64,000 bases of DNA from Betaproteobacteria bacterium (GCA_025356445.1 JANXSZ010000001.1:1-64000); one strand, 5' to 3'. Shown: positions 41,524 through 51,355, counted from the first letter of the stretch. Notes: generated from the letters alone by a model not told the origin. Made by a program: numbers and translations.

Positions 41524-44500
41524 ATGTACAACCTTGACGCCCGCCCACTCAGCCTAACCCTTCTGTGGGAGGAGGGCCGAGTCTGTGCGTCACTCAGCGA
41601 TTCCAGGTCGGTAGGCCTTCTAGGCAGCATCGCAGTAAGCACCACACTGCTGGATGAGGTTGCGGCGCAAGCAACCCAATTGTTGCGCCAGCCTTCGACC
41701 CCTTCATTCGAAGACACCGACTGCAGCAGCCTGGAAGACCGTATCGATCGATTGGGTGGGTTAATTTTTTCACGGCTGCTACCACCTGCTATCGCACGAT
41801 TTCTGGCCGATAGCATGGAGCGGCCCTTGTTTTTGCAGTTGAGTACCCGCCTGCTGCCTATTCCTTGGGAAATAGCCTTTGATGGCAGCCAGTTTTTAGG
41901 GCACAAGTTTGCCATCTCCCGTTACCTGCTGTCAGACCAGCCGGTGATGGCGATGCCCTCGATCCGGGCAGGTGCTGATGCCATCAAGGTGCTGGTGGTT
42001 CACAGTGATGATGAACTGCACTTTGGGAACCTGTATGCCCAAGGGCTGCTCAGCAAGCTTGCAGGTGCGGAAGGTCTGTCGGTCAAAGGTGTGGCCACCC
42101 ACGAACTGGCGCACGCACAGCTGCTGCGCCTGGTCGGGGAAAGTGACATCGTTCACTGCATTGGCCCTTTAGCGGCAACCGTGCACCATGCAGAAGACGA
42201 CGGCAAAGTAAACCGTGCAGTAGGCAGTGAACGCAATGCGCTGTCTGTTCGCGAGATTGCCCATTTAACGGCTCCTCCAGCGCTGCTGATTTTTGAACGC
42301 ACGGATATCGCCAGTGTTCAGCGTCGCGCCTTGGACAACCATGCTGTACTGGCCAGCGATATCAGCCGTGCAGGCTTAAGCGCCCTGTTTCGCAACACCT
42401 TGCTGGCTGGCGATGACCAGCCCGGCTACATGGCAGAGTTTTACAAGGCGTTGGCGAGAGGAGCCTGCCTGGGTATAGCTCTGCGCGACGCTGCGCTGAT
42501 CACGCAAGGCTCAGCCAAGCTCTCTGCGACAGCCTGCCTGGACACAACGCTCTATGGCGATGCCACGGTGGCGCTGGCACAGCAGCAGCCTCAGCAAGAA
42601 GACAATAACCAGCGCCAAGTCACTGTTTTCTCCTACGATTTGGTGGACTCCACCAAACTGCTACGCACATTGGGGGCCGAGAAATACAGCGATGTGCTGG
42701 ACAACTACCACGCTTGCTGCGCCCAAATCGTACAAAAATGGGGTGGCGTGGCCAATGACCCCCAGGGCAGTGACGGCGTGATGTGCTACTTTGGCCTGCA
42801 CGTTGCCTATGAGAATTCAGCAGCGCAATGCCTGCGCGCAGCGCTTGAAACGGTTGAAGCCGTAGCCAAACTGCAATTGCGCATACGTATCGGCATCGTG
42901 ACCGGGCCTGTTGCCGTCAAGGCGGGTATGCCGGTAGGCGTGGCCATCCATTTTGCGGCGCGGCTACAGTCCATTGCCGAGCCGGGCACTGTGGTAGTCA
43001 GTGAATCCACACGCCAAATTGTGCAACAGCAATTTGATTTTGCGCACTTGGCGCATGTGCCTGAACTCAAGGGCATAGACCGCCCTGGCGCGGCCCATCG
43101 CCTGCTGGGTGAGCGCCACGCCTACAGCCACCCCCCAGAATCTGCCCCGCGCCCAACCCCTTTTGTGGGCCGTTCGCGCGAACTGGTCTGGCTGCAAGAC
43201 CATTGGGCACAGATCTGCCATGGCACGGCCACTGCGGTGCTGGTGTCCGGTGAAGCAGGCATAGGCAAATCCCGGCTGGTTCGTGAGTTTCGACACACCC
43301 TTGCCAACAGCGAACACACAGCACTGGAGTGCCGCTGTACGGCTGACCACGCGAACAGCGCTTTTCACCCCGTCACAGATTTGCTTCGCCGCTGGCTGAA
43401 AATTCAGCAAAGTGACACCCCACTGCAAAAACGCGCCAAACTGGAAGCGGGACTGCGGCTCGCACTCGCCCCCAACGGCCAGGGACGTGGTGCCACGTGG
43501 AGTGCACCTGACGAGGCCTTGGCTGCACTCCATGCGATGGCTGCCCTGTTGGCCATTCCTCTGGTTTCCGGAGCTACCGAACAGAAAGTGTCTGTCGAAA
43601 AACAACGGCAAGTAACCCTCAAGGTACTGGTACGCTGGATCGCCCAGCAAGCCCACAACGCACCGGTATGTCTGGTGGTTGAAGACGTGCAGTGGGCGGA
43701 CCCTTCCAGCCGCGAACTTTTTAAACAACTGGTTGCGACCTCAACAGGCTTGCCCCTGCTGGTCCTGCTGACCCAGCGTACAGAGGCATCAGCCCCACGT
43801 GACCCTGGCTTTGCGGTCAAAGAAATCGAGTTGAAAGGCCTGACCCCTGAAGCCACTCAAGGCATGATCCGCAGCGTGTACGGTGAATCACCGGTTAACC
43901 ATGAAGCGGTTCGGTTGCTGGCGGACAAGTCTGACGGTGTACCGCTGTTCATTGAAGAATCAGCGCGCATGCTGCTTGACCTTAAAGCCGCAAATGCCAG
44001 CACGGCTCCAGGAAAGGACGCTGGGGCAGACAGCACCAGCGATACAGCATCGGCACTGAACCTCAGCGTACCCGGTACGATTCAAGACCTGCTGATGGCG
44101 CGTCTTGACCGGCTGGCCGGTGCCAAGCATATTGCGCAATTGGGCAGCGCTATGGGCCGTGAATTTTCCTTGGGTCTGATGCAGGCCGTTCTGGCGCATG
44201 ACAGCTCGCCAGTGCGGGCCGACAATTTGGTTGCCCGGTTGCACGCCTTGGTACTGTCAGGCATGCTGATGGAGAAAACAGACGGCGACAGCGTCAGCTA
44301 TTTCTTCAAACATGCCCTGATGCGCGATGCAGCCTACCAGTCGCTGTGGGAACGTGATCGCCGCAAGTTCCACAGGGCGATTGCGCTGACCGTCAGCGAC
44401 TGCTTCCCCGAACTGGTGCAAAGTCAGCCGGAAATGTTGGCACACCATTACACAGGGGCAGGTATTCACGCCAAAGCGGTGGAACACTGGCAACGGGCAG

Positions 44501-45783
44501 CCCGCTTGGCGCTCTCACGCTCCGCCCACGAAGAAGCCATCAGCCACTTGGGCCAGGGCTTGGCGCTGGTCGATATGCTGCCGGTTGGTCCGGAACGTGA
44601 CCGTGCGGAATTAAGCCTTCAACTGCTGCTGGCAGGGCAGCTCATCGCCACAGAAGGCTATGGCGCTGAGCGTGTAGGGGCCATTTACCAACGTGCATCG
44701 GCACTGTGCCGCGCCAGTGGCGACCAACGGGCTTTGCTGAAAGTGCAGTTTGGTCTGGAGGGCTATCATTTTATGCGCGGTAACTTTGGTCAAGCCCATG
44801 CCATTGCTGCGCAAGCCACCGATCTGGTGCGCCAGTCCAGCGATCCGATGCGCCGGGTACAGTCCACCTGGGCGGTCGCCAATATTTTGTTTCACCAAGG
44901 TGACCTGGTCTCCGCAGTGGCCCATATGGATGCAGGCTTGGCCGACTACCACAAGTTGGAGCATCGCCCCAGTGCGGTGCAAGATCCTGGCGTGATGTGC
45001 CTGTGCTACTCGGCACTGGCCCAATGGGAGCGGGGCTTGTCCGAAGATGCACTGCGTCGCGCCAATGCGGCCATTGCACTTGCGGAGCAACTTAAACACA
45101 AGTTCAGTCTGGGTGAAGCTTATGGTTTGGTCGCGATGTTGCATTACTTTCGCAGCGATTACCCACAAGCACTGCGCTGCGCCCAGCATGCCAAAGATAT
45201 TTGCGAAGAAGGCGGGTTTACTGTCTGGCTGGCCCATGCCAAACTGATCCATGGCCGTGCGTTGGCTCAATTGGGCGACGCTAAGGCGGGCATTGCAGAG
45301 ATGGCTGACGGCTACAGCATGTGGGTCGCCACAGGTGCAGTAGTGACACGGGCTTTCTATCTCGCCATTCAAGCTGAAGGCTATGCACTGGCAGGGCAGC
45401 CCCATGAAGGCTTGGGCTTGCTGCAAACGGCATTTGATTTGGTGTCGCGCTACGGCGAGCGTTACTACGAAGCTGAAATTCGCCGCCTGTATGGCGAGTT
45501 GCTGCTTCAATCTGCCGCTTTGCAAGGCCAGGATCGCCAAGCAGAAGCGGAGCGCTGGTTCAGCAGCGCATTGGATGCGGCGAACAGCCGACAGCTTGAC
45601 GCCCACGCTCTGCGTGCGGCAACCAGTCTCGCCCAGCTTTGCTCACGACAAGGACGCGTGGCCGAAGCACAGCGCATCTTGACGACAGCCCTTGCCAACT
45701 TCAAAGAAAACCTGCCCACACATGACAGGCTGTCGGCGCGCCATCTGCTGGACTTGCTTGAAGCAGGAAATACATCGGTGTAG
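41524..45783 (+). CDS. Large signalling protein: degenerate CHAT, class III cyclase-like, STAND-type ATPase, TPR-like region
   Basis: A 1419-residue cytoplasmic protein. (1) About 1-340 resembles a CHAT peptidase: LPIPWEIAFDGSQFLGHKF at 111-129 matches the CHAT PWE signature, but the HFxGHG motif reads VHCIGP at 210-215 and the catalytic Cys region reads FERTD at 257-261, so protease activity looks lost. (2) About 364-530 is a nucleotide cyclase homology domain with metal-type Asp D372 and D417; the transition-state Asn is His476 in VGVAIHFAARLQ, while Arg480 is kept. (3) An ATPase follows with Walker A GEAGIGKS at 576-583 and Walker B LVVEDVQWAD at 717-726. (4) About 1000-1400 is alpha-helical with TPR-like spacing. 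It precedes P450, DyP and patatin genes on the same strand. Possible roles are regulator, sensor or adaptor; none is proven. Confidence 0.8.
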   Translation: MYNLDARPLSLTLLWEEGRVCASLSDSRSVGLLGSIAVSTTLLDEVAAQATQLLRQPSTPSFEDTDCSSLEDRIDRLGGLIFSRLLPPAIARFLADSMERPLFLQLSTRLLPIPWEIAFDGSQFLGHKFAISRYLLSDQPVMAMPSIRAGADAIKVLVVHSDDELHFGNLYAQGLLSKLAGAEGLSVKGVATHELAHAQLLRLVGESDIVHCIGPLAATVHHAEDDGKVNRAVGSERNALSVREIAHLTAPPALLIFERTDIASVQRRALDNHAVLASDISRAGLSALFRNTLLAGDDQPGYMAEFYKALARGACLGIALRDAALITQGSAKLSATACLDTTLYGDATVALAQQQPQQEDNNQRQVTVFSYDLVDSTKLLRTLGAEKYSDVLDNYHACCAQIVQKWGGVANDPQGSDGVMCYFGLHVAYENSAAQCLRAALETVEAVAKLQLRIRIGIVTGPVAVKAGMPVGVAIHFAARLQSIAEPGTVVVSESTRQIVQQQFDFAHLAHVPELKGIDRPGAAHRLLGERHAYSHPPESAPRPTPFVGRSRELVWLQDHWAQICHGTATAVLVSGEAGIGKSRLVREFRHTLANSEHTALECRCTADHANSAFHPVTDLLRRWLKIQQSDTPLQKRAKLEAGLRLALAPNGQGRGATWSAPDEALAALHAMAALLAIPLVSGATEQKVSVEKQRQVTLKVLVRWIAQQAHNAPVCLVVEDVQWADPSSRELFKQLVATSTGLPLLVLLTQRTEASAPRDPGFAVKEIELKGLTPEATQGMIRSVYGESPVNHEAVRLLADKSDGVPLFIEESARMLLDLKAANASTAPGKDAGADSTSDTASALNLSVPGTIQDLLMARLDRLAGAKHIAQLGSAMGREFSLGLMQAVLAHDSSPVRADNLVARLHALVLSGMLMEKTDGDSVSYFFKHALMRDAAYQSLWERDRRKFHRAIALTVSDCFPELVQSQPEMLAHHYTGAGIHAKAVEHWQRAARLALSRSAHEEAISHLGQGLALVDMLPVGPERDRAELSLQLLLAGQLIATEGYGAERVGAIYQRASALCRASGDQRALLKVQFGLEGYHFMRGNFGQAHAIAAQATDLVRQSSDPMRRVQSTWAVANILFHQGDLVSAVAHMDAGLADYHKLEHRPSAVQDPGVMCLCYSALAQWERGLSEDALRRANAAIALAEQLKHKFSLGEAYGLVAMLHYFRSDYPQALRCAQHAKDICEEGGFTVWLAHAKLIHGRALAQLGDAKAGIAEMADGYSMWVATGAVVTRAFYLAIQAEGYALAGQPHEGLGLLQTAFDLVSRYGERYYEAEIRRLYGELLLQSAALQGQDRQAEAERWFSSALDAANSRQLDAHALRAATSLAQLCSRQGRVAEAQRILTTALANFKENLPTHDRLSARHLLDLLEAGNTSV

Positions 45784-45815
45784 CAAAACCATAGACGTTA
45801 AAAAAGGGGACTCGG

Positions 45816-47729
45816 ATGACAAAACTTGATGAATTCAAGGCTAAAAATACCATCAACCCGCAGCAAGCCAGTCACCTGCTGTTCACCTGGCTGTGCGACG
45901 ACAGTGAGCGCGCTGCCCTCTACCGTTGCCTGCTAGAGCACAAAACCGTGCTGTGTTTTCAGAGTCGCGCCGACACCAAAGAGAATGCCTGGGAAACGAC
46001 GCCCTCGCAGTACCAGCAGCAGGTGTACCTCATCACCGCGCAAGACCATATCAGCCAAGCCTTCAAAAGCAGTCGGGGTGAATTCAGCAACATGCCCTAC
46101 CAAGCGCTGGGCAGCGGGACGTTCATGCTGGGCCTTGACCCAGAAACCCCAGCAATACCTTCAGACCATGCCCAACAACGCCAATTCGCCCATGACTACC
46201 TGAAGCTGGACGCAGCGACAGTCAACGCCTTGTGCACCATCAGTGTGATGACGGCGGGTGTACTGCCCCTCAAACAGCGGTTTTTTGATCTGGCTGATTT
46301 GGCCGAGCAAGCCGCCTTGCGTTTTGTGGGTTTTTTGTTTGGCTTTGCCCAGGCAGACCACCCCCTGCTGGAAGGGGCACTGCGCAAAGCCTCGCGCGGG
46401 CTGGCCTACCAAACCTATGGCCGTCACTTCGTCACAGAACCTGGCGTCATCCCGGAAAACAGTGCAGCCATGGCCATGCTGGCCAAGCGCACGGCCGAGT
46501 TGATTGGCCTGTACCAATCGTCAAAAGGACAGGTGCAAGAAGACGAGCACGCCACGCTTGAAACCGAGCTGGCAGAGATACACGCATTCGAACCAGTTCA
46601 GGGGAACTTTCCACTGAAAGACTTTGTACCCGTGCTCAGACGCATGGCTGCAGCAGGCGGAACACCAGCACAACCGCAACCCTACAGCGGAACAGAACTG
46701 GCCGTGATTGTGGTGGGGTTGATGGCAGGCACAGTGGGTAATGTGCAAAGCGGTGTGGCGATGGCCATAAACCAGTTCTTTCGCTCAGGCCCTGATGCGT
46801 GGAAAAGAGCACACCACGCGGCTGGTGAATCATGGTTGAAGCATGGCAATAACGCTGGGGAAGACACCGCATTCACGCCTTTTGTGTGGGAAGCCTTGCG
46901 ACTCAACCCTCCAGCAGCCTTTTTGCCACGAAAAACGACGAAAGACATCCATTTTTCGCCCCATGGCCCAGTGGACATTCCTAAAGACAGCATCGTATTG
47001 ATGGCCGTAGGGGCTGCCACACGCGACTTGCCCCCCAGCGAAAACCCGGACCAATTCGACGAAACGCGCCACCCCTACAACCCCTTTATTTTTGGGGGCA
47101 ACCCGAACACCGACTTCCTGCACCAGTGTGTGGGTCAGTATTTAGCCATGCCGCTCATCACCCACATTGCACGCCAAGCCTTGCTGCTGGAAGGCCTGGC
47201 AGAACGCCTCAGTCCCAGAACCGGCGAGCCCTTTGGGTTGCAAAAGCTGTGGGGTTACACCGCGCTGAGCTACCCCATGGAGTACACGCGTTCGGCAGTC
47301 ATCAAGCAATCACCCTTGAATGTCTTCATGCGGGTAAAGATGCCCCTGTCAGAGCATGCAGAAGCGCTGAAACGCATCATCCAGTACGGAGCACCCCGCA
47401 TTGAGAAAAAGCTGATGGACGCAAGGCATGTTCATTTTGCACAGTTCATGCTGCTCGAGAACGACAGCACGCTGGCGCTGTTCACCGTCTACGACCGTGA
47501 TTTTGACTCCTACATCGAACACTTTGCGCTGCAAATTGGCCCTTTGTTTGACCGTATCTTTGAACACATCCAAGATGCCCCTCCGCTGCCGGTGAACGAG
47601 TTCCCCAAAGAGTTTGTCGACACAATTCGGCGTTTTAACCAGCGGCCTGTAGGCGACTACTTCTTCAGCGCCTACCCCAAGGGAGAAGTCGCCGATATCC
47701 AGCTGAACATCAACAGGCTCAAGCCATGA
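45816..47729 (+). CDS. Cytochrome P450 with C-terminal extension
   Basis: A 637-residue haem-thiolate protein. K-helix ExxR is E359-R362 in FVWEALRLNPPAAFLPRKT. The haem-binding loop is 424-440 (FIFGGNPNTDFLHQCVG) with C438 as the ligand. In the I-helix region AGTVGNV at 304-310, the expected acid and Thr of the oxygen-activation pair are V307 and G308, and N309 is present. This pattern is seen in P450s that use peroxides or rearrange hydroperoxides rather than NADPH-dependent monooxygenases. Residues about 500-637 extend past the P450 fold and include HVHFAQFMLLENDSTLALF and YDRDFDSYIEHF. A good AGGGGA site precedes the ATG. Its stop overlaps the DyP start (ATGA). Confidence 0.85.
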   Translation: MTKLDEFKAKNTINPQQASHLLFTWLCDDSERAALYRCLLEHKTVLCFQSRADTKENAWETTPSQYQQQVYLITAQDHISQAFKSSRGEFSNMPYQALGSGTFMLGLDPETPAIPSDHAQQRQFAHDYLKLDAATVNALCTISVMTAGVLPLKQRFFDLADLAEQAALRFVGFLFGFAQADHPLLEGALRKASRGLAYQTYGRHFVTEPGVIPENSAAMAMLAKRTAELIGLYQSSKGQVQEDEHATLETELAEIHAFEPVQGNFPLKDFVPVLRRMAAAGGTPAQPQPYSGTELAVIVVGLMAGTVGNVQSGVAMAINQFFRSGPDAWKRAHHAAGESWLKHGNNAGEDTAFTPFVWEALRLNPPAAFLPRKTTKDIHFSPHGPVDIPKDSIVLMAVGAATRDLPPSENPDQFDETRHPYNPFIFGGNPNTDFLHQCVGQYLAMPLITHIARQALLLEGLAERLSPRTGEPFGLQKLWGYTALSYPMEYTRSAVIKQSPLNVFMRVKMPLSEHAEALKRIIQYGAPRIEKKLMDARHVHFAQFMLLENDSTLALFTVYDRDFDSYIEHFALQIGPLFDRIFEHIQDAPPLPVNEFPKEFVDTIRRFNQRPVGDYFFSAYPKGEVADIQLNINRLKP

Positions 47730-49216
47730 GCGCCCTCATTCAAGCGACTGTGGCAAAAAAGCGGTGCCAGCAGCTGCCCTTGCACGATATTCAAAAACTG
47801 GTGCTTCAAGGCTACGACCTGCACCGCAGCCGTTACTTTGTGCTGACCGTTGCCAACGCCAAACTGGCACGGCAATTCCTCACCAAGCTGGCGGACGAGC
47901 ACTGGCTGACCACCGCAGAGCACCACCGTGATCACGTTGCAGAACGGCTGCATGGCCAGCAATGCCCTGTGAGCCTGGGCTTGACGTTCAAGGGGCTGGT
48001 CGCGCTGGAACTGAACCCGCGCTACCAAGCCGTCTTCAAAAACAAAGCACGGGCTTTTGCCGAAGGAGCCCATTTCCGTGCGGCCGCCCATCTGGCCGAT
48101 ACGGGCAACAATGCCGCTGCATTTTGGAAACCTGAATTTCAGCCGGACAAAGCCCATGTGCTGCTGACACTGCACGCCGACACCCAGCAAGCATTGGCAC
48201 AAACCCAGAAGACCTTGCAAGACATGGCAGGCAGCGCTTTTGAAATGGTCGGATGGCATAACGCTTTTGAAGGCCAGCACCTGGAAGAAACCGCACCAGC
48301 CCGAAAAGCCAGACGGGTTCATTTCGGAATGCTGGACGGTATTTCTCAAGTCCGCATCCACGGCGCTACCGACAAAGCGGGAACCCATGAACCCGGTGAA
48401 CTGCTGCTGGGTCATGCCAATGACGAAGGCTTCAACGCGTGGCGGCTGGCCACAGAGCGGCCTGATTTGTCCGGTACGTCAGGCCTTTCGGCCCAAGCAC
48501 AATCGGCAAAGGTAGCGAGCTTCTTTAAAAACGCCAGCTTCTGCGCATTTCGCCCCATGCGGCAGTATGTGACCGCATTCCAGCAATTCTTGGACACACA
48601 GGCCAGTGAATGGGACGTGTCAGCCGAATACCTGCGGGCCAAGCTGTTGGGCCGCTGGGACAACGGGCAGGTCATTCGGACAGGCGAAACCTCGGCCCCA
48701 GTGGCTCAAGCCGGAAGGCTGGATGACTTCAAATTCAAGGACGATCCTGCGGGACTAGGTTGTCCTTTTGGTGCACACATACGCCGAATGAACCCCCGTG
48801 ACGATGGTGTAGTGCCCACCCGCCGCCGACCCATCGTGCGACGTGGTATGCCTTATGGCCCCGCATGGACACCGGCCGAGCCCAATGGCACAGACCTCGA
48901 GCGAGGCCTGCTGGGCTTGTTTTTCTGTGCCAGCCTGGAAGACCAGTTCGAGCATTTGCTCAGTGAATGGGCCAATGCCAACCCGATGGGTGTGCCCAAC
49001 AAAGGTACGGCCAAAGACCCACTGATCGGTAACCACAGCCAACCGCATGCGCGTTTTGATATTCCCCAAGACATGGACCACGACCCACTGGCGCTGCAAG
49101 GCTTCACCCCCTTTGTGCGTACCGAGGGCACCTTGTATGCCTTTTTTCCAGGCCTTCACGGCTTGCACATGATGAACGACTCTGAGGTTTTTGGCCCGCG
49201 TGCGTGCCATGACTGA
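47726..49216 (+). CDS. DyP-type haem peroxidase
   Basis: A 496-residue protein of the dye-decolorising peroxidase superfamily. The GxxDG motif is G201-D204-G205 (HFGMLDGISQ), which places the catalytic Asp. The proximal haem His is H351 in CPFGAHIRRMNPR. RRRPIVRRGMPYGP at 366-379 and GRWDNG at 309-314 also match. The length suits the longer, fungal-like DyP classes. No Tat signal is seen, so it is likely cytoplasmic. It starts inside the P450 stop and its 3' end overlaps the patatin gene by 8 nt, so the three proteins are probably made in fixed ratio. Natural substrate is unknown. Confidence 0.88.
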   Translation: MSALIQATVAKKRCQQLPLHDIQKLVLQGYDLHRSRYFVLTVANAKLARQFLTKLADEHWLTTAEHHRDHVAERLHGQQCPVSLGLTFKGLVALELNPRYQAVFKNKARAFAEGAHFRAAAHLADTGNNAAAFWKPEFQPDKAHVLLTLHADTQQALAQTQKTLQDMAGSAFEMVGWHNAFEGQHLEETAPARKARRVHFGMLDGISQVRIHGATDKAGTHEPGELLLGHANDEGFNAWRLATERPDLSGTSGLSAQAQSAKVASFFKNASFCAFRPMRQYVTAFQQFLDTQASEWDVSAEYLRAKLLGRWDNGQVIRTGETSAPVAQAGRLDDFKFKDDPAGLGCPFGAHIRRMNPRDDGVVPTRRRPIVRRGMPYGPAWTPAEPNGTDLERGLLGLFFCASLEDQFEHLLSEWANANPMGVPNKGTAKDPLIGNHSQPHARFDIPQDMDHDPLALQGFTPFVRTEGTLYAFFPGLHGLHMMNDSEVFGPRACHD

Positions 49217-51212
49217 ACGATCGCCATCACCGGGAACCGACTCAGGCACTCCGCCGCCACTGAGTCAAGACGTACAGCCTCCCGTTGACCGGTATTGCGA
49301 TGTAGTGATGAAGGGTGGTGTGGTCGATGGTGTGGTCTATCCCTGGGCCATCATGGAGTTGGCCCACCACTACCGCTTCAAAAACTTGGGCGGGACCTCC
49401 GTCGGTGCGCTGGCAGCCGCGTTGACGGCAGCTGCGGAATACAGCCGCCGCTATGGCAGCGTAGCTGGTTTCAACAAAGTGATGCTGGACATCCCGAACC
49501 AGTTGGCCGCAGATGCAGAGGGTCAACCGGGGCGCACCAAGTTGTTCTCGCTGTTCCAAGCCGGGCCTCAGACGCAACGCTTGTTCGACGTGTTTGTTGC
49601 CTTGTTCAGCGCACCTGCCAGCCATAGCCAGCCACAGCGCTGGCTGACAGGGCTGACAGCACTGTTGAAAGCCTACGCCCCCTGGGCCTTGCTGGGTGTG
49701 CTCACGGGAACGGCCTTGGCATTGCTGCTGGGGTGGGCCATGGACTTGCCTGCGGGGTGTTGCGACCTGACGGCATGGCCCAAAGGTGCTTTTGCAGCCA
49801 TTTGCCTGTGCTTTGCCCTGGCTGGTCTGCTGATACTGGTCGCGCTAGGCGTATGGCGTGACGTGGTGCACGGGTTGATACCCGGAGGCATGGGACTGTG
49901 TACCGGCAAGCAAACCAGCACTGCCCCTGACGCGCCACAAGGTCTGATTGATTGGTTGCACGAAGGCATTCAAGCTGCAGCAGGGCGCACTCTGGACCAA
50001 GCCCTGACCTTCAAAGACCTGTGGGAAGCACCGGGTGGCCCAGTTACCCCCTCCTCATCCACCCACACTCAACGTACTCACGCTATCGACCTGCGGATGG
50101 TCAGCAGCAACCTGACACAAGGTCGCCCTTACGGTTTTCCACTGACGGGCACCAACAACCGCTTGTTTTTCAAAAAAGAAGAACTGGACGCGTATTTCCC
50201 CACCGAAGTGATGAACTGCCTGATGGCCAAAGCCCATGTGTATACGCCAGTGCTGTCCACCTCGGCAAAAAAACCTCTCGAAGAGATCTACTACGAACTG
50301 CCTCAAGGCGATTTACCCATCATCATTGCCACCCGGCTGAGCCTGAGTGTGCCTATCTTGTTCAAAGCGGTACCGCTCTGGGCACTGAAACCCAACCCAG
50401 GCCCGGACGAGCATCCGTTCTATTGCTGCTGGTTTTCAGACGGTGGCATTTGTGCCAACTTCCCCATTCACCAGTTCGATGCCGCCCTGCCCCGCTGGCC
50501 CACCTTCGGCATCATGCTGGACAAGGCGCGTGCAGGCCAAGCCGTGTGGGTGACAGACCATCACGACGATGGGCTTCAGGAAGACGGCGACTTGCCCGCC
50601 ATCAACACCTCACCCAGCCGCCAGTTGTTCCACTTTGCATGTACGCTGCTCAATACGGTGCGCAGCTGGAATGACAACACGTCAGTTCGGCTACCCGGTG
50701 TACGCGACCGGGTGGTACATATCGGGCTGGAGCCAGAGCACAGCAGCCAGGATGCCAAGGATTCGGTGCTGGGCGGTCTGAACTTGAAAATAACGGGTGC
50801 TGCGATTCTGCGCATGGCAGGCGTATACGGGCGACCTGCGGGCCAAGCATTGGTGAAGAAATTTCTGGGCCCCCCCCTGAGCGCAAGCACCGCAACCGCT
50901 TGGCGCGAACACCGGTGGGTGCGGTTCAACAGCTTTGCAACGGCACTGCGCACACGCATGGCAGGTTTTACCGCGGCAGCACAGCACGCCGAACACACAG
51001 ATCCCCTCTCAGCACAGATAGCCGACAGCAGAATCACCCCGCCACTGACAGGCACTGTCGCGCACAAGGCATTGACGAAAACCCAAGCCGATGCCCTGGT
51101 CAACGTGCAGCAGGCGCTGAGTGCACTTGAGGCGAGCTTCGCCGTGGCCCATCCTGTCCAGCCTTACAAACCCGATCCTCAATCTGAACTGCATATGCGC
51201 TCACCGTTGTGA
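49209..51212 (+). CDS. Patatin-like phospholipase with two membrane helices
   Basis: A 667-residue patatin-fold lipase. The oxyanion loop is in VVMKGGVVDGVVYPWAI (32-48), the nucleophile S64 in GGTSVGALAAAL, and the catalytic Asp D411 in WFSDGGICANFPIHQFD, so the Ser-Asp dyad is complete. Two hydrophobic helices at about 157-178 and 193-215 interrupt the fold between Ser and Asp and should anchor it to the inner membrane. The family releases fatty acids from phospholipids. ATG 49209 lies within the last codons of the DyP gene; ATG 49191 would lengthen it by six residues. Last gene of the cassette. Confidence 0.88.
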   Translation: MTERSPSPGTDSGTPPPLSQDVQPPVDRYCDVVMKGGVVDGVVYPWAIMELAHHYRFKNLGGTSVGALAAALTAAAEYSRRYGSVAGFNKVMLDIPNQLAADAEGQPGRTKLFSLFQAGPQTQRLFDVFVALFSAPASHSQPQRWLTGLTALLKAYAPWALLGVLTGTALALLLGWAMDLPAGCCDLTAWPKGAFAAICLCFALAGLLILVALGVWRDVVHGLIPGGMGLCTGKQTSTAPDAPQGLIDWLHEGIQAAAGRTLDQALTFKDLWEAPGGPVTPSSSTHTQRTHAIDLRMVSSNLTQGRPYGFPLTGTNNRLFFKKEELDAYFPTEVMNCLMAKAHVYTPVLSTSAKKPLEEIYYELPQGDLPIIIATRLSLSVPILFKAVPLWALKPNPGPDEHPFYCCWFSDGGICANFPIHQFDAALPRWPTFGIMLDKARAGQAVWVTDHHDDGLQEDGDLPAINTSPSRQLFHFACTLLNTVRSWNDNTSVRLPGVRDRVVHIGLEPEHSSQDAKDSVLGGLNLKITGAAILRMAGVYGRPAGQALVKKFLGPPLSASTATAWREHRWVRFNSFATALRTRMAGFTAAAQHAEHTDPLSAQIADSRITPPLTGTVAHKALTKTQADALVNVQQALSALEASFAVAHPVQPYKPDPQSELHMRSPL

Positions 51213-51278: not shown

Positions 51279-51355
51279 GGTGGTATAGCTCAGTTGGTTA
51301 GAGCGCAGCATTCATAATGCTGAAGTCGGTGGTTCAAATCCACCTACCACCACCA
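51279..51355 (+). tRNA. tRNA-Met (CAT)
   Basis: A 77-nt cloverleaf with encoded CCA. The acceptor GGTGGTA pairs with TACCACC; the anticodon arm is GCATT-CAT-AATGC; the T-arm is GGTGG-TTCAAAT-CCACC. The anticodon is CAT. The stem sequence and the paired first acceptor base argue for elongator Met, not initiator; tRNA-Ile2 with a modified CAT is harder to exclude by eye. Confidence 0.92.

What the first reader, a model, noticed from the sequence alone, without database searches (positions are those of the whole stretch)
41524..51212. Cassette joining a CHAT-cyclase-ATPase-TPR protein to P450, DyP peroxidase and membrane patatin
Seen: four same-strand genes; the last three overlap (ATGA, then 8 nt) and the first is 32 bp upstream of the P450. 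Known: patatins release fatty acids from lipids; DyP enzymes use peroxides; P450s without the acid-alcohol pair include peroxygenases and hydroperoxide-rearranging enzymes; fungal oxylipin synthases fuse a haem dioxygenase/peroxidase to a P450. Inference: this could be a bacterial route in which the membrane patatin frees an acyl chain that DyP and P450 oxidise to an oxylipin-like signal or toxin, controlled by the large STAND-type protein. A second reading is a stress or phage-response system, since patatin effectors and cyclase domains occur together in CBASS/Pycsar-type defence. I know of no description of this exact set, but I could not search.
Basis: partly seen in the sequence, partly recalled or inferred. 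Interest (0 to 1): 0.8.

Follow-up and report, generated by a model that had tools for sequence, protein, structure and literature searches.

The report
Sensor-controlled bacterial lipid-oxidation operon
Four neighbouring genes (a large sensor protein, a P450, a haem peroxidase and a membrane lipase) form a compact operon that recurs in the same order in many bacteria and looks like an undescribed, regulated way of cutting and oxidising membrane lipids, comparable in parts to the pathways that make hormone-like oxidised lipids in fungi, plants and animals.

Summary
Genes A (inactive CHAT–cyclase–ATPase–TPR), B (P450 plus a new C-terminal domain, here "FLD"), C (DyP) and D (patatin) lie as stated. 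A–B–C occurs in this order in all 19 loci found with this P450 (window included). Patatin follows in 11; five patatin-less loci carry a ferredoxin gene upstream instead. In 12 relatives the site is empty (echA runs into a tRNA gene), so the window's insert is exactly the four genes.

More widely, FLD accompanies this DyP clade in 76 of 80 loci from many phyla. P450 genes lie within 4 kb in 26 loci, against none at 6–10 kb. STAND–cyclases, lipases, animal-haem peroxidases and catalase-like proteins are enriched the same way. The P450 lacks the acid–alcohol pair and carries Asn there in 19 of 19, like prostacyclin synthase, plant allene oxide synthase and fungal diol synthases.

Best reading (about 0.45): a STAND-gated lipase–peroxidase–P450 cascade making an oxidised lipid. 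The architecture is shown; chemistry, trigger and purpose are inferred. Defence is possible but unsupported: the flanks are not defence islands. No description was found in the held literature.

The parts
41524..45783 (+). Gene A: 1419 aa STAND protein: CHAT-like N-terminus, class III cyclase, AAA/STAND ATPase, TPR
   Evidence: Pfam AAA_16 4.5e-21, TPR_12, Guanylate_cyc 5.3e-9; A-B-C order in 19 loci
41752..42498 (+). CHAT-like domain of A, protease dyad lost (Pro215 and Arg259 at the His and Cys positions)
   Evidence: Pfam CHAT 5.2e-6 on the isolated N-terminus; separase/SAVED-CHAT fold match; dyad not conserved in 15 sequences
42607..43059 (+). Class III nucleotide cyclase domain of A; metal Asp372 and Asp417 kept, transition-state Asn replaced by His476
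   Evidence: Pfam; alignment of 19; positions
43159..43764 (+). AAA/STAND ATPase core of A with Walker A (GEAGIGKS) and Walker B (VVED)
   Evidence: Pfam AAA_16; motifs
45816..47729 (+). Gene B: P450 with C-terminal FLD domain, 637 aa
   Evidence: Pfam p450 2.4e-8; P450 folds by Foldseek; relatives 35-56% identical
46725..46748 (+). P450 I-helix motif AGTVGNVQ: acid-alcohol pair absent, Asn309 and Gln311
   Evidence: Asn in 19/19, Gln in 15/19; aligned to DT-type P450s
47127..47129 (+). P450 haem-ligand Cys438 (HQCVG)
   Evidence: HxCxG in 19/19
47307..47711 (+). FLD domain of B (new, no Pfam or PDB match), invariant His540
   Evidence: Profile found near DyP in 76/80 loci; no family match; invariant His
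47726..49216 (+). Gene C: DyP-type peroxidase, 496 aa; Asp204 (GxxDG), His351, Arg373
   Evidence: DyP_N 9.4e-8; TIGR01413 3.7e-22, below its cut-off; PDB DyPs to 5e-32; residues
49209..51212 (+). Gene D: patatin-like lipase, 667 aa; Ser64 (GTSVG), Asp411 (DGG)
   Evidence: Pfam Patatin 1.8e-10; Ser, Asp and oxyanion loop in 11/11
49677..49856 (+). Two predicted membrane segments between the catalytic Ser and Asp of D
   Evidence: Hydropathy; positions
51279..51355 (+). tRNA-Met bordering the operon; insertion-site neighbour, not part of the system
   Evidence: ARAGORN; empty site in 12 relatives

Best explanation
The four genes are one operon and one functional unit. Proposed working: the STAND protein A senses a trigger through its inactive CHAT and TPR parts, uses ATP, and signals or scaffolds through its cyclase domain. 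This switches on a lipid-oxidation cascade at the inner membrane: patatin D frees an acyl chain, and the DyP (C) and Asn-type P450 (B), brought together by the FLD domain, oxidise or rearrange it with peroxide. The product would be an oxidised-lipid signal or toxin. Shown here: tight gene packing, conserved order, insertion as a unit, active-site residues, the peroxide-type P450 motif, and different lipase types in related loci. Inferred: co-transcription, substrate, reaction, trigger and purpose.
For: Same order in 19/19 loci and an exact four-gene insert at an otherwise empty site. P450, STAND, lipases, animal-haem peroxidases and catalase-like proteins cluster within 4 kb of FLD-DyP and hardly at 6-10 kb (P450 profile control). 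P450-FLD-DyP fusions. Patatin or a weakly LCAT/PGAP1-like hydrolase next to or fused to the P450. P450 distal Asn 19/19, as in PGIS, plant AOS and fungal LDS/EAS (PMC13049297). Intact patatin and DyP residues.
Against: No dioxygenase or lipoxygenase in the window operon to make a lipid hydroperoxide. Five patatin-less relatives carry a ferredoxin, which suggests electron-fed P450 chemistry there. Distal Asn is neither necessary nor sufficient for peroxide chemistry, and some related FLD-DyP loci have P450s with a normal DT pair. The cyclase lacks the usual Asn. No biochemical data.
Confidence: 0.45

Rival explanations
1. Conflict or anti-phage system: A is a STAND invader sensor, and patatin plus the haem enzymes form a membrane-damaging suicidal effector set. 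This may overlap with the best explanation as its purpose.
For: STAND and CHAT parts; patchy distribution (15 of 350 other family genomes match); CHAT, P450 and DyP diverge faster than regulator, FLD and flanks; related patatins on plasmids lie beside AAA ATPase, S8 peptidase, PLD or ThiF genes.
Against: Few of 60 flank proteins match PADLOC and the flanks are mostly housekeeping. The four proteins have no strong PADLOC match. Three enzymes with intact sites are elaborate for a suicide effector.
Confidence: 0.25
2. Oxidative-stress repair: patatin removes oxidised acyl chains, DyP and P450 detoxify peroxides, A senses damage.
For: Peroxide-using enzymes beside a lipase; catalase-like proteins in 13 related loci.
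Against: Rare and mobile rather than core; fast divergence of the P450 and DyP; many ordinary peroxidases exist already.
Confidence: 0.15
3. A small biosynthetic cluster for a non-lipid metabolite, with P450 and DyP as tailoring enzymes.
For: FLD-DyP lies near TOMM/SagB genes in Gloeothece and two Bradyrhizobium loci; A resembles the TOMM kinase/cyclase model.
Against: No scaffold-making enzyme or precursor peptide in the operon; lipase unexplained.
Confidence: 0.1
4. Aromatic or lignin catabolism.
For: DyPs oxidise dyes and lignin models (general knowledge); a LigB gene lies downstream in the ferredoxin variant.
Against: LigB is only a flanking gene of one variant; STAND-cyclase and lipase are unexplained.
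Confidence: 0.05

Closest known systems
Fungal dioxygenase-P450 fusions (Ppo/LDS/EAS/AOS) and the cyclooxygenase-PGIS/TXS cascade
   Same: A haem peroxidase-type partner with a P450 lacking the acid-alcohol pair and carrying distal Asn (PMC13049297)
   Different: The partner here is a DyP, not a COX-type dioxygenase; no sequence relation shown; STAND regulator, FLD and patatin added
Cyanobacterial catalase-lipoxygenase and catalase-haem dioxygenase fusions
   Same: Bacterial enzyme pairs acting on lipid hydroperoxides (PMC11719350); catalase-like proteins accompany FLD-DyP in 13 loci
   Different: No LOX, DOX or catalase in the window operon
STAND/NTPase conflict systems of Kaur et al. 2020 (PMC7159879)
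   Same: ATPase with cyclase and (inactive) caspase-fold domains controlling further genes
   Different: That paper's text does not mention P450, peroxidase, patatin or lipase; the output here is a multi-enzyme set
TIGR03903 TOMM kinase/cyclase proteins
   Same: Cyclase-ATPase-TPR arrangement (481.7 bits)
   Different: Below the 705.75 cut-off; CHAT instead of kinase; no TOMM genes in the operon
Pycsar and CBASS (patatin CapV)
   Same: Cyclase and patatin in one locus
   Different: Weak PycC match only, no CD-NTase, no PycTM or TIR effector

Membership tests
CBASS | CD-NTase-type cyclase | tested here: not met
   Cyclase is class III Guanylate_cyc; no CD-NTase match in PADLOC
Pycsar | PycC cyclase with TM or TIR effector | tested here: not met
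   Best PycC match 8e-8 inside a STAND protein; no effector match
Pycsar | Active pyrimidine cyclase | not testable with these tools
   Metal Asp kept, transition-state Asn is His in 18/19
TIGR03903 TOMM kinase/cyclase | Score above curated cut-off | tested here: not met
   481.7 against 705.75 bits
Fungal DOX-P450 oxylipin synthases | Animal-haem-peroxidase dioxygenase domain | tested here: not met
   Absent from the window operon; present near related FLD-DyP in 7 of 80 loci
Fungal DOX-P450 oxylipin synthases | P450 with hydroperoxide isomerase activity | not testable with these tools
   Asn motif present; needs assay
Cytochrome P450 | Haem Cys and ExxR | tested here: met
   Cys438 and E359-xx-R in the window; ExxR lost in several relatives
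P450 monooxygenase | I-helix acid-alcohol pair | tested here: not met
   GN instead of D/E-T
DyP peroxidase | GxxDG Asp, proximal His, distal Arg | tested here: met
   Asp204, His351, Arg373
Patatin | GxSxG nucleophile, DGG Asp, Gly-rich oxyanion loop | tested here: met
   11/11
CHAT protease | Catalytic His-Cys dyad | tested here: not met
   Fold supported, dyad absent
STAND NTPase | Walker A and B plus repeat sensor region | tested here: met

The most novel reading that the evidence does not exclude
A bacterial counterpart of eicosanoid/oxylipin signalling: a STAND sensor triggers membrane-lipid release and two-haem oxidation to an alarm or toxic lipid, used in immunity or inter-bacterial conflict. 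FLD would be a new domain coupling haem enzymes, and the architecture is spread over many phyla with interchangeable lipases, peroxidases and sensors.
Probability: 0.3. Interest if true: 0.92.

Novelty: categorically new. Interest (0 to 1): 0.8.

Why it matters
Regulated oxidised-lipid cascades (lipase, then peroxidase or dioxygenase, then a P450 isomerase) are known as hormone systems of animals, plants and fungi. A conserved, sensor-controlled bacterial operon with analogous parts, and an undescribed domain that accompanies the peroxidase almost everywhere, makes it testable whether bacteria run such cascades for signalling or immunity. It also offers a setting for a large clade of DyP peroxidases whose natural role is unknown.

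Tried and rejected
Genomic island by composition: GC is 0.56-0.60 through the operon and close to the right flank. Defence-island location: not supported. Internal promoters or terminators: no more than shuffles give. FLD homology to known families by sequence: none. AlphaFold models of B (pLDDT 57) and A's N-terminus (66) are too weak for residue geometry and were used at fold level only. Literature searches for the gene set found no description; preprints and most subscription papers are not held. The near/far profiles were partly built from near hits; the P450 profile was checked on 14 outside P450s, the other profiles were not checked this way.

Full report
OBSERVATION. Pfam gives Guanylate_cyc, AAA_16 and TPR in A, p450 in B, DyP_N in C and Patatin in D. 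CHAT is found only when A's first 350 aa are scanned alone (E 5e-6; four of five relatives match). The predicted fold of that part matches separase and SAVED-CHAT structures, but the catalytic His and Cys positions are Pro and Arg here and are not conserved in 15 sequences, so it is most likely a pseudo-protease. I call it FLD because its model is beta-alpha-beta-beta-alpha, like part of a ferredoxin-like fold (the overall model is weak). It has no Pfam or PDB sequence match and one invariant His.

THE OPERON IS A CONSERVED UNIT. A scan of 85k genomes with a DyP alignment returned 80 loci. L043-L047, L054 and L084 show A-B-C in the same order, with D in L047, L054 and L084. A profile of gene B against 351 genomes of the window's family matched 15 others; 14 of these have the P450-FLD protein, and all 14 have A-B-C in order. 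D follows in 11. A 2Fe-2S ferredoxin gene (Fer2 6.6e-15 in L043) lies directly upstream of A in five (L043/L174, L175, L176, L044, L045), none of which has D. L046 and L180 end at the DyP, and L181 has neither. In 12 same-family genomes the window's site is empty: echA is followed after roughly 25-110 bases by a tRNA gene (eight at 89-100% identity to the window's tRNA-Met, four more divergent), then the 189-aa gene and miaB. The window's insert is thus the four genes and nothing else. Where flanks could be compared, most operons sit in different places.

WIDER SYSTEM. FLD lies within 4 kb of the DyP in 76 of 80 loci. Within 4 kb against 6-10 kb (582 kb against 452 kb of sequence) the counts are P450 26 v 0, STAND 18 v 1, animal-haem peroxidase 7 v 0, catalase-like 13 v 0, alpha/beta-hydrolase 7 v 0, and patatin 8 loci v 1. 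The P450 profile detects 14 of 14 outside P450s, so its zero is not blindness. Single proteins join the parts: P450-FLD-DyP next to a cyclase gene in Pararhizobium, P450-FLD-DyP in a Sphingorhabdus genome and FLD-DyP-P450 in Variovorax, and FLD-FLD-DyP in L025. In the L052-L062 group without patatin, a hydrolase stands beside or is fused to the P450; its matches to LCAT, PGAP1 and DUF676 are weak (E about 1e-3 to 4e-5), so this is a lead rather than an assignment. Patatins with FLD-DyP recur in Bacteroidota (L079, L098), Chthonomonadaceae (L095) and Chloroflexi (L074, with an animal-haem peroxidase of E 1e-113). If the hydrolase assignment holds, two unrelated lipase types in the same slot are the strongest sign that lipids are the substrate.

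ACTIVE SITES. Patatin Ser, Asp and oxyanion loop are conserved in 11/11. The DyP Asp is present in 18/18 and the proximal His in 16/16 sequences readable in the alignment. The P450 haem Cys is present in 19/19. The I-helix acid-alcohol pair is replaced, with Asn in 19/19 and Gln two residues later in 15/19. Aligned to P450s with a normal DT pair (L076, L080), this Asn sits at the Thr position. Prostacyclin synthase (Asn287), plant AOS (Asn321) and fungal LDS and EAS have Asn there; the same review shows that it helps but is not always needed (PMC13049297). The K-helix ExxR is lost in several relatives, though present in the window. The cyclase keeps both metal Asp residues, but the transition-state Asn is His in 18/19, so cyclic-nucleotide output is doubtful.

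EVOLUTION. Between L174 and L176, flank proteins are 87-98% identical, mostly above 94%. Cyclase, STAND, TPR and FLD are 90-96% identical, but P450 75%, DyP 71% and CHAT 79%. P450 and FLD are parts of one protein, so the contrast is not a matter of gene age. Regulator and FLD stay constant while sensor and enzymes diversify, as expected if trigger and product vary.

MECHANISM AND RIVALS. I favour a STAND-gated lipase-peroxidase-P450 cascade (0.45). Shown: unit, order, residues, peroxide-type motif. Inferred: substrate, hydroperoxide source (no dioxygenase is in the operon), product and trigger. Defence as purpose stays open (0.25): STAND and CHAT parts, patchy distribution and fast divergence fit, but flanks are mostly housekeeping and no CBASS or Pycsar set is present. 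Repair (0.15), other secondary metabolism (0.1) and aromatic catabolism (0.05) explain less.

NOVELTY. No held paper describes the set. It fails defining tests of CBASS, Pycsar, TIGR03903 and fungal DOX-P450. Each enzyme belongs to a known family; the system, and FLD, do not. The call would fall to 'new variant of a known kind' if a preprint or subscription paper already describes it.

Noticed in passing
L031:2969-8335; L041:3969-9281: Sinorhizobium plasmids carry a cyclase-AAA-TPR gene like A (residues 361-1378) divergent from a D-like patatin, without P450 or DyP: a possible two-gene relative.
   Followed up: partly
L174-L176, L044, L045: Ferredoxin (upstream of A) and patatin (downstream of C) never occur together in the 19 loci, suggesting two functional variants.
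   Followed up: partly
L026 (L007): An FLD protein lies next to a catalase-family gene, with a TssA/ImpA-like (type VI secretion) gene nearby (identified by eye).
   Followed up: no
L036, L082, L122: FLD-DyP genes lie near TOMM/SagB-type biosynthesis genes in Gloeothece and two Bradyrhizobium/Frankia-labelled loci.
   Followed up: no
L037-L040: Rhizobial plasmid FLD-DyP genes lie among CHAT, S8 or trypsin-like peptidase, PLD, non-specific endonuclease, LodA/GoxA or metallophosphoesterase genes, resembling arrays of conflict effectors.
   Followed up: partly
L174-L176, L178, L028: Crp/Fnr-family regulator genes lie near several of these loci, a possible reader of a cyclic nucleotide.
   Followed up: no
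L072, L077, L082, L092, L101, L122: A RoxA-like cytochrome c gene follows FLD-DyP in six Bradyrhizobium-type loci.
   Followed up: no
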